Source: Bifidobacterium breve
Lineage (GTDB): Bacteria; Actinomycetota; Actinomycetes; Nanopelagicales; Nanopelagicaceae
Direction: 5' to 3'
NCBI GenBank assembly: GCA_945889195.1
Contig: CAMDBB010000005.1
Span: 51,075 to 115,074, forward strand
Length of the DNA: 64,000 nt
The notes below the pieces were generated by a model. It was given only the letters and a program-made list of their open reading frames with translations, made no database searches and was not told the DNA's origin. Below, piece after piece: positions 20,844-23,033 of this stretch (its first letter is position 1; every line of letters begins with the position of its first letter). A program made the translations under genes and the position numbers.

Positions 20844-22283
20844 ATGCGCCGCGCGAAAATAGTTTGCACACTTGGACCTGCCGTTGAATCACCCGAAAAG
20901 GTGCGTGAACTGATCGCCGCCGGCATGAATATGGCGCGCCTGAACCTTTCACATGGCTCCTATGAAGAGCATCAAGGTCGCCTGGATCGAGTTCGCGCGG
21001 CTGCGAAAGAGGCAGGGAAAGCGGTCGCTGTATTGGTTGACCTACAAGGCCCAAAGATTCGCTTGGCGCGATTTGAAAATGGTCCACATGAATTAGCTCG
21101 TGGCGATATCTTCACAATTACCACCGATGATGTTCCCGGAACTAAAGAGCGCGTTGGAACTACCTACAAAGGTCTACCGGGGGATTGCAAAGCTGGAGAT
21201 CGCATTCTTATCGATGATGGCAAGGTCACCGTTGAGGTCGTAGAAGTTAAGGGCAACGATGTTGTCACTAAGTGCATCCAGCCAGGATTTGTGAGCAACA
21301 ACAAGGGCATTAATCTTCCAGGTGTTGCTGTATCAGTTCCTGCGATGTCTGAAAAAGATGAAGATGATCTTCGTTGGGGACTTCGCGCCGGTGCAGATTT
21401 TATTGCTCTCTCATTTGTTCGTAACGCTGCTGATATCAAAGATGTGCATGCAATCATGGATGAAGTTGGTATCCGCGTTCCTGTTATTGCGAAGATTGAG
21501 AAGCCACAAGCCGTTGCCAATCTTGTCGAGATCGTTGAAGCATTTGATGGCATCATGGTGGCTCGTGGCGACCTTGGCGTAGAACTGCCAATTGAAGATG
21601 TGCCAATGGTGCAGAAGCGTTGCGTTGAGTTAGCTCGTGATGCGGCAAAGCCGGTCATCGTGGCAACTCAGATGCTCGATTCCATGATTACCAACTCCAG
21701 TCCTACTCGTGCTGAAGCCACAGACTGTGCCAATGCTGTGCTCGATGGCGCAGATGCCTTGATGCTCTCTGGTGAAACTTCTGTTGGTGAATTTGCTATT
21801 GAATCTGTAAAAACAATGGCGCGCATCATCGAACGCACCGAAGAGCTAGGACTTGATCGCATCCGCCCACTGATGACAGCGCCACGAACTAAGGGTGGAG
21901 CAATCACAAAGGCCGCTGCAGAGGTAGGCGCCACAGTAGGTGCGAAATTCCTGGTTACCTTCACGCAATCTGGAGATTCCGCCCGACGTATTAGCCGCCT
22001 ACGTTCACCAATTCCAATCCTTGCAATCACGCCAGAAGATGGCACTTACAATCGCCTAGCTCTCTCATGGGGTGTGGAATCTTTAGTAACTCCTATGGTT
22101 AAACACACTGATGAGATGGTTCTGCAGGCAGATAAAATGCTCCTCGAAGGTAAGCGCGCTGTAGAGGGCGAACTTGTAATGATCGTTGCAGGGTCACCTC
22201 CCGGGATTCCTGGATCGACCAATGCGATGCGTGTTCACAAAGTGGGCGATGCTGTAAACGGCGTAGCCGCTGCTTATCGCTAA
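20844..22283 (+). CDS. pyk: Pyruvate kinase
   Basis: Final ATP-forming step of glycolysis. 479 aa with KIVCTLGPAVESPEKV, MARLNLSHG, the active-site segments VIAKIEKPQAV and GIMVARGDLGVELP, and LSGETSVGEF. ATG 20844 is preceded by AAGG at a 7-nt spacing. A TATAGAT element 13 nt upstream could be a -10, but the promoter is not clear. A pyrimidine-rich tract follows the stop without a convincing hairpin. Confidence 0.97.
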   Translation: MRRAKIVCTLGPAVESPEKVRELIAAGMNMARLNLSHGSYEEHQGRLDRVRAAAKEAGKAVAVLVDLQGPKIRLARFENGPHELARGDIFTITTDDVPGTKERVGTTYKGLPGDCKAGDRILIDDGKVTVEVVEVKGNDVVTKCIQPGFVSNNKGINLPGVAVSVPAMSEKDEDDLRWGLRAGADFIALSFVRNAADIKDVHAIMDEVGIRVPVIAKIEKPQAVANLVEIVEAFDGIMVARGDLGVELPIEDVPMVQKRCVELARDAAKPVIVATQMLDSMITNSSPTRAEATDCANAVLDGADALMLSGETSVGEFAIESVKTMARIIERTEELGLDRIRPLMTAPRTKGGAITKAAAEVGATVGAKFLVTFTQSGDSARRISRLRSPIPILAITPEDGTYNRLALSWGVESLVTPMVKHTDEMVLQADKMLLEGKRAVEGELVMIVAGSPPGIPGSTNAMRVHKVGDAVNGVAAAYR

Positions 22284-22336: not shown

Positions 22337-22342
22337 TAGGAT
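22337..22342 (+). promoter_or_regulatory. -10 hexamer of the tRNA / ANTAR regulator unit
   Basis: TAGGAT ends 8 nt before the first base of the tRNA, so the transcript would start 1-2 nt upstream of it. No second -10-like element can lie between the tRNA and the response regulator, because only one base separates them. The tRNA and mRNA should therefore share this promoter. Confidence 0.55.
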
Positions 22343-22350
22343 TGGAACAC

Positions 22351-22423
22351 GCCTCGGTACTCCAACGGTAGAGAGGGCAGTCTCAAACACTGCATAGTGT
22401 CGGTTCGAATCCGACTCGAGGCA
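22351..22423 (+). tRNA. tRNA with CAA anticodon (Leu by codon table) but class I shape
   Basis: 73 nt. Acceptor GCCTCGG pairs with TCGAGGC (one G-T pair), discriminator A. Anticodon stem GCAGT/ACTGC, 7-nt loop CTCAAAC with T33 and anticodon CAA at 22384-22386. T arm GTCGG-TTCGAAT-CCGAC. D arm is weak (CTC/GAG with GG in the loop). The variable loop is only 5 nt (ATAGT), whereas bacterial leucine tRNAs normally have a long variable arm. No CCA is encoded. The next base but one is the ATG of the ANTAR regulator. tRNA fold is well supported; amino-acid identity is not. Confidence 0.85.
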
Positions 22424-22424
22424 C

Positions 22425-23033
22425 ATGAGTATCGACGCAGCAACGCAGACAGGTGCTACACCTGTGCGGATCCTGGTCGCTGAAGATGAAGCGCTTATCC
22501 GTATGGATCTAGTAGAGATGTTGCAAGAGGCTGGTTACTCAGTCGTTGCGCAAGCTGCTAATGGTGAGGAAGCAATAGCACTCGCTACTGAGCATCGACC
22601 AGATTTAGCAATCTTGGATGTAAAGATGCCAATCCTTGATGGAATATCTGCAGCTGAAAAAATCATTTCGATTGCACCAGTTCTAATGTTGACTGCATTT
22701 AGCCAACGTGAATTGGTTGAACGCGCCCGCGATGCGGGCGTGATGGCATATGTCGTTAAGCCATTTACTATCGGCGACCTCATACCCGCCATTGAGATAG
22801 CCATCAGTCGACATACCCAGATGAGATCTCTGGCTGAAGAAGTCGCCGATTTACATGAGCGCCTTGAAACTCGAAAAATTATCGATCGGGCTAAGGGAAT
22901 CTTGATGAAGGCGCTCAACCTCTCTGAGCCAGAGGCTTTTTCGTGGATTCAGCGAGCCGCCATGGACCGACGGTTGACCATGAAAGAGGTCGCCCATGCC
23001 GTTATCTCCCCTGAAGCAGCTCTCGATAAATAG
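22425..23033 (+). CDS. pdtaR: ANTAR-domain response regulator (PdtaR-like)
   Basis: 202 aa. N-terminal receiver domain: acidic DE pair in VAEDEALIRMD, phospho-acceptor Asp in LAILDVKMPILDG, and MAYVVKPFTI with the conserved Lys. C-terminal ANTAR RNA-binding domain (LETRKIIDRAKGILMKALNLSEPEAFSWIQRAAMDRR). Closely resembles mycobacterial PdtaR (Rv1626), an antiterminator that binds hairpin RNA under control of kinase PdtaS. ATG follows the tRNA by one base and has no room for a ribosome-binding site outside the tRNA. Confidence 0.93.
   Translation: MSIDAATQTGATPVRILVAEDEALIRMDLVEMLQEAGYSVVAQAANGEEAIALATEHRPDLAILDVKMPILDGISAAEKIISIAPVLMLTAFSQRELVERARDAGVMAYVVKPFTIGDLIPAIEIAISRHTQMRSLAEEVADLHERLETRKIIDRAKGILMKALNLSEPEAFSWIQRAAMDRRLTMKEVAHAVISPEAALDK

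What the first reader, a model, noticed from the sequence alone, without database searches (positions are those of the whole stretch)
22351..22423. Class I-shaped tRNA carrying the leucine anticodon CAA
The 73-nt gene folds as a canonical tRNA with a 5-nt variable loop, yet its anticodon loop CTCAAAC gives CAA. Bacterial tRNA-Leu is a class II tRNA with a long variable arm, so this molecule either is an atypical leucine tRNA, is charged with another amino acid, or has a non-translational job. The D stem is also weak. Its place beside the RNA-binding ANTAR regulator makes a regulatory role worth testing.
Basis: partly seen in the sequence, partly recalled or inferred. Interest (0 to 1): 0.7.

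Follow-up and report, generated by a model that had tools for sequence, protein, structure and literature searches.

The report
Short-armed leucine tRNA beside pdtaR
This looks like a working leucine tRNA without the long arm that textbooks give every bacterial leucine tRNA, a form found in about half of the actinomycete genomes sampled; in this bacterial family it also ends one base before a regulator gene's start codon, as if cutting out the tRNA made that gene's messenger.

Summary
In detail: window 22351-22423 is a tRNA with anticodon CAA and a 5-nt variable loop. It is best read as a real leucine tRNA, not a recharged or regulatory RNA. It keeps the E. coli leucine identity set (A73, A14, A15-U48, G18G19, A20a). 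Its nearest relative in the genome is Leu(UAA), also short-looped, and UUG/UUA codons fall on leucine positions. The genome has no class II tRNA-Leu for UUR codons and one LeuRS. The 'weak' D stem is the ordinary 3-bp leucine D stem.

This 'S-type' occurs in about half of 197 actinomycete genomes and in phages. It has a coordinated core signature (A9, C12-G23, C13, A46-G47-U48) and alternates with the long form at the same pdtaR-linked locus, even within genera. A 2023 review says bacterial tRNA-Leu is always long-armed.

Unforeseen: in Nanopelagicaceae the pdtaR start codon (ATG or GTG, never TTG among those listed) lies exactly at +2 after A73 in 156 of 201 genomes, whatever the N-terminus. 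I propose that tRNA 3' processing yields a leaderless pdtaR mRNA. This is untested, and canonical RNase Z was not found in the family.

The parts
22351..22423 (+). tRNA-Leu(CAA), short variable loop (S-type); A73 at 22423, CCA not encoded
22360..22375 (+). D arm: 3-bp stem CTC/GAG (22360-22362, 22373-22375), loop CAACGGTAGA with C13, A14, A15, G18G19, A20a
   Evidence: structure; covariation of pairs 10-25 and 11-24
22384..22386 (+). anticodon CAA in loop CTCAAAC
22394..22398 (+). 5-nt variable loop ATAGT (A46 G47 U48)
22424..22424 (+). C74, the only base between A73 and the pdtaR start codon
22425..23033 (+). pdtaR: response-regulator receiver plus ANTAR domain protein, start codon at +2 after A73
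   Evidence: Pfam PF00072 and PF03861; ORF; junction
22337..22342 (+). -10-like TAGGAT 14 nt before the tRNA; no full sigma-70 consensus
   Evidence: TANNNT at -12 to -20 in 30 of 40 distinct leaders; the strict scan found nothing
20844..22283 (+). pyk, pyruvate kinase, upstream neighbour of the conserved locus
   Evidence: Pfam PF00224 and PF02887; synteny

Best explanation
A functional elongator leucine tRNA that reads UUG. It belongs to a structural subtype of bacterial tRNA-Leu ('S-type') that has a 5-nt loop in place of the long variable arm and a core re-tuned to fit (A9, C12-G23, C13, A46-G47-U48). [quoted passage not shown] Shown here: structure, conservation, signature, identity elements kept, the genome's only UUR-reading leucine tRNAs are of this type, UUR codons on leucine positions. 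Inferred: transcription, charging with leucine and use on the ribosome.
For: Rfam and ARAGORN calls; conserved in the genus. The two UUR-reading Leu tRNAs of the genome are both short-looped and are each other's nearest relatives; one LeuRS (32). TTG aligns to Leu at 25 of 44 and TTA at 10 of 19 well-aligned E. coli sites, against 48 of 84 for CTT and 39 of 68 for CTC (51). E. coli leucine determinants A73, A14, A15-U48, G18G19 and A20a are all present, and the long arm is dispensable in E. coli (PMC9976931). Levitt pair 15-48 covaries A-U to G-C (37, 61). Short and long forms alternate at the same locus within genera, so closely similar LeuRS enzymes must accept both. Phage copies are annotated tRNA-Leu (20-23).
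Against: No expression or charging data. tRNAscan-SE isotype models could not be run. C13-A22 is a mismatch and the tertiary core is inferred from sequence.
Confidence: 0.9

Rival explanations
1. Besides being a tRNA it punctuates a dicistronic transcript: one promoter drives tRNA plus pdtaR, and endonucleolytic 3' maturation of the tRNA (after A73 or C74) leaves a leaderless pdtaR mRNA starting (C)AUG or GUG, as in animal mitochondria. This adds to the best explanation rather than replacing it.
For: Start codon exactly at +2 after A73 in 156 of 201 family genomes; only ATG or GTG seen although TTG and any base 74 were allowed; N-termini of different sequence and length behind it. A -10-like motif stands before the tRNA and none in the acceptor strand. 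Of 13 inspected genomes with a longer spacer, about 8 have AAGGA, AAAGGA, GAAAGGA or GGAGG. S. coelicolor cuts most CCA-encoding tRNAs between C74 and C75 (PMC4681348), and mycobacteria need only ATG or GTG at the 5' end (PMC4633059).
Against: No RNA data. No canonical RNase Z above cut-off in 61 family genomes, so the cutting enzyme is unknown (RNase E/G is present). GAGG in the acceptor strand near the ATG might act as a Shine-Dalgarno on an unprocessed transcript. The junction is unique among the own tRNAs.
Confidence: 0.45
2. The S-type reached different actinomycetes by replacement of a small tRNA segment (horizontal transfer, perhaps phage-borne) rather than by repeated loss of the arm in place.
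For: S and L forms differ together at 9, 12-23, 13 and 46. Nine families and six genera hold both forms. G052 and G162, same genus, are about 90-98% identical through pdtaR, and identity ends about 75 bp before the tRNA. The pdtaR tree needs 13 changes, at least 5 forced by well-supported branches. Phages carry S-types.
Against: Intergenic DNA diverges anyway; loci were chosen to include both states; 73 nt give no reliable tree; no donor identified.
Confidence: 0.6
3. The tRNA is charged with another amino acid or UUG is reassigned.
For: Only the unusual shape.
Against: UUG and UUA sit on leucine positions; leucine identity elements kept; nearest relative is Leu(UAA).
Confidence: 0.03
4. It is a pseudogene or a dedicated regulatory tRNA-like RNA.
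For: Adjacent to an RNA-binding ANTAR regulator.
Against: Sequence nearly invariant in the genus; cloverleaf pairs covary; no other class II or class I tRNA with anticodon CAA in the genome; long forms occupy the same place elsewhere.
Confidence: 0.04

Closest known systems
Bacterial class II tRNA-Leu (E. coli; also the long form at the same locus in other actinomycetes)
   Same: Anticodon, A73, 3-bp D stem with GGNAGA loop, A14, A15-U48, locus beside pdtaR
   Different: 5-nt loop instead of 12-16 nt; A9 for G9, C12-G23 for G12-C23, C13 for G13, A46 for C46
Animal mitochondrial tRNA-Leu(UUR)
   Same: Leucine tRNA without a long arm, recognised through A73 and A14 (PMC9976931)
   Different: Bacterial and chromosomal, with standard D/T-loop elements; not derived from mitochondria
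Phage-borne and horizontally acquired short-loop tRNA-Leu (Streptomyces phage Alone3, cyanophage S-CREM1, Mooglevirus; M. mucogenicum tRNA cluster)
   Same: For the phage copies the same signature and short loop; for M. mucogenicum a reported short variable loop (PMC6582537)
   Different: The window copy is a single chromosomal housekeeping gene in a conserved locus
tRNA punctuation of animal mitochondrial mRNAs
   Same: tRNA 3' end almost directly followed by a start codon, no Shine-Dalgarno in between
   Different: One bacterial junction; processing not shown; canonical RNase Z not detected

Membership tests
tRNA (Rfam RF00005) | Cloverleaf fold and score above the gathering threshold | tested here: met
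   54.2 bits against 29
tRNA-Leu (isotype) | Leucine identity elements A73, A14, A15-U48, G18G19, A20a | tested here: met
   Present in the sequence; set taken from PMC9976931
tRNA-Leu (isotype) | Its codon means leucine in this genome | tested here: met
   TTG and TTA on leucine positions
tRNA-Leu (isotype) | Charged with leucine | not testable with these tools
   Needs aminoacylation or tRNA-seq
Class II tRNA | Variable arm of 10 nt or more | tested here: not met
   5 nt, ATAGT
tRNA-punctuated leaderless mRNA | Start codon at or within one base of the tRNA 3' end | tested here: met
   +2 in 156 of 201 family genomes
tRNA-punctuated leaderless mRNA | mRNA 5' end made by endonucleolytic tRNA 3' processing | not testable with these tools
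   No RNA data; canonical RNase Z absent, RNase E/G present

The most novel reading that the evidence does not exclude
In Nanopelagicaceae (freshwater actinobacteria) maturation of tRNA-Leu(CAA) directly creates the leaderless mRNA of the ANTAR regulator PdtaR, so that regulator message is coupled to tRNA production: a bacterial case of tRNA punctuation, in a lineage that reads UUR codons only with short-armed tRNA-Leu.
Probability: 0.45. Interest if true: 0.8.

Novelty: new variant of a known kind. Interest (0 to 1): 0.6.

Why it matters
Reviews treat a long variable arm as universal for bacterial tRNA-Leu (PMC9976931), and a tRNA-seq read classifier expects 13-22 nt there for leucine (PMC6297222). 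About half of the sampled actinomycetes break this rule for UUR codons, with a recognisable core signature, swaps within genera and phage carriers. That gives a natural test of what LeuRS and SerRS really read. If confirmed, the fixed tRNA/pdtaR junction would couple an RNA-binding regulator to tRNA maturation and give a bacterial counterpart of mitochondrial punctuation.

Tried and rejected
UUR reassignment: rejected by codon alignment. Chance or pseudogene: rejected by conservation and covariation. A special link between the short arm and the ANTAR gene: rejected, long forms occupy the same locus. Plasmid relatives: none. Strict promoter and terminator scan: nothing. Paper searches for short-armed bacterial tRNA-Leu gave only indirect mentions, and reviews of odd tRNAs and of alternative codes do not describe it in the passages read. 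tRNAscan-SE isotype models were not available. Signature frequencies were set aside because those patterns preselect CCAA and AGT; one search uses loci found without them.

Full report
Observation. ARAGORN calls tRNA-Leu(CAA), Rfam gives 54.2 bits over 22351-22423, and the free fold recovers the cloverleaf with a 3-bp D stem. The variable region is ATAGT, 5 nt. A73 is 22423; CCA is not encoded; C74 is 22424 and the pdtaR ATG starts at 22425.

Genome context. The window lies in a 1.43-Mb, 97.6%-complete genome. It is close to Candidatus Planktophila (Nanopelagicaceae): pdtaR of P. versatilis is 92% identical. All 44 tRNAs were collected. The leucine tRNAs are UAG and GAG (long arm) and CAA and UAA (both short-looped, both with a 3-bp D stem and A73). 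No class II tRNA reads UUA or UUG. The closest own tRNA to Leu(CAA) is Leu(UAA) and vice versa. There is one LeuRS gene.

Meaning of the codon. I aligned window proteins with E. coli K-12 orthologues (among them gltB, gltD, pykF, polA, uvrA, uvrB and rpsA) and looked at well-aligned sites. TTG falls on Leu at 25 of 44 and TTA at 10 of 19; CTT at 48 of 84 and CTC at 39 of 68. No other residue stands out for TTG or TTA. The comparison with actinomycetes whose Leu(CAA) is class II also puts leucine first (64% for both codons, against 60-84% for CTN). UUR therefore means leucine here.

Identity. In E. coli the leucine determinants are A73, A14, the 15-48 pair, G18G19 and A20a, and the long arm is dispensable (PMC9976931). 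The window tRNA has all of them. In loci found without selecting for these positions, 44 distinct short Leu(CAA) sequences all have A9, C12-G23 and C13-A22, and 40 of 44 have A46 G47 U48; 16 long ones all have G9, G12-C23 and G13-A22. Three short tRNAs of one genus have G15 together with C48, a compensatory change of the Levitt pair. D-stem pairs 10-25 and 11-24 occur in four Watson-Crick types each. The D stem is therefore not weak but of the leucine kind.

Distribution. Pattern searches in 197 actinomycete genomes found short Leu(CAA) in 95, short Leu(UAA) in 110, and a long CAA or UAA in 57, with no hits to the reversed controls. The patterns miss some genes, so these are lower bounds. Named carriers include Streptomyces, Mycobacterium, Corynebacterium, Bifidobacterium, Micromonospora and Planktophila. 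Phages of Streptomyces, cyanobacteria and enterobacteria carry the same form, annotated as tRNA-Leu, and many viral contigs match. In the literature held I found only hints: one paper names M. tuberculosis tRNA-Leu 2, 3 and 5 as the long-looped ones (PMC11541572), and another reports a probably horizontally acquired tRNA-Leu(TAG) with a short loop in a M. mucogenicum cluster (PMC6582537). [quoted passage not shown]

Evolution at one locus. Both forms sit next to pdtaR, often with pyk nearby; 98 of 120 matched loci from named genomes have pdtaR within 1.5 kb. By the lists, nine families and six genera contain both forms. A pdtaR tree needs 13 changes of state, at least 5 of them forced by well-supported branches; the long loci were picked to cover many genera, so this is not a rate. 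In one genus G052 (long) and G162 (short) are about 90-98% identical through pdtaR, and identity ends about 75 bp before the tRNA; in another (G084, G098) both flanks are similar and the tRNA segment is not. I infer replacement of a small tRNA segment rather than stepwise change, but intergenic DNA diverges anyway.

The pdtaR junction. In most actinomycetes examined the tRNA is divergent from pdtaR (146 loci against 56 co-oriented). In Nanopelagicaceae it is co-oriented, and 156 of 201 genomes have a start codon at exactly +2 from A73. All listed cases read A73-C-ATG or A73-C-GTG, although the pattern also allowed any base 74 and TTG. The protein N-terminus before the conserved RILVAEDE motif differs in sequence and in length (3 to 15 residues in a sample of 16), so the start is held by the tRNA and not by the protein. 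Thirteen inspected genomes without the junction have longer spacers; about eight of them carry AAGGA, AAAGGA, GAAAGGA or GGAGG before the start, the others weaker motifs. A -10-like TANNNT stands 12-20 nt before the tRNA in 30 of 40 distinct leaders, and the acceptor strand before the ATG contains none. Among the own tRNAs only this one runs into a gene this way.

Mechanism proposed for the junction. One promoter, one transcript tRNA-pdtaR; endonucleolytic maturation of the tRNA 3' end leaves a leaderless (or 1-nt-leader) pdtaR mRNA. Two published facts make this plausible in actinobacteria. In S. coelicolor most CCA-encoding tRNAs are cut between the two Cs (PMC4681348), which here would leave exactly 5'-AUG or 5'-GUG. 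[quoted passage not shown] Weak points: none of 61 family genomes has a canonical RNase Z above cut-off, while RNase E/G is present in 41 of 41, so the enzyme is open; the acceptor strand contains GAGG close to the ATG, which might serve as a Shine-Dalgarno on an uncut transcript; and there are no RNA data.

Verdict. The tRNA is an unusual but sound leucine tRNA of a widespread subtype that current reviews overlook. The regulatory suspicion is not borne out for the tRNA as such, but the neighbour gene's start codon is tied to the tRNA end in a way that deserves a direct test.

Noticed in passing
window 22423-22427; family-wide: The pdtaR start codon lies at +2 after A73 of the tRNA in 156 of 201 Nanopelagicaceae genomes; a minority has a longer spacer, mostly with a Shine-Dalgarno-like motif.
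   Followed up: yes
L029 1501-1573 (G000 C2:106102-106174, minus): The only tRNA-Leu(UAA) of the genome is also short-looped, so all UUR decoding rests on short-armed tRNA-Leu.
   Followed up: yes
L038 101-175 (G000 C4:76658-76731): A tRNA with an 8-nt anticodon loop that ARAGORN reads as a four-base anticodon (gacg).
   Followed up: no
L042 (G000 C8:12146-12217, minus): A low-scoring tRNA called Gly(ACC) with a poorly paired D stem, 41.4 bits, the weakest of the genome.
   Followed up: no
Nanopelagicaceae, 61 genomes: No canonical RNase Z (TIGR02651) above cut-off in any genome; only weak partial hits in long ORFs (560-800 aa) that look like other metallo-beta-lactamase-fold proteins.
   Followed up: partly
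L074 1497-1684; L077 768-1075; L075 995-1067; L076 994-1072: Phage tRNA-Leu genes with anticodons CAA, UAA and UAG share the short-loop signature, across phages of very different hosts.
   Followed up: partly
L224, L248: Short-loop Leu(CAA) in MAGs labelled Chloroflexaceae and Deltaproteobacteria, without pdtaR nearby; real spread or contamination not decided.
   Followed up: no
G271, G260, G249, G237 (genus g88), downstream of the tRNA: Instead of the start codon, an inverted repeat (CCTACC...GGCAGG in three of them) follows the tRNA within about 60 nt.
   Followed up: no
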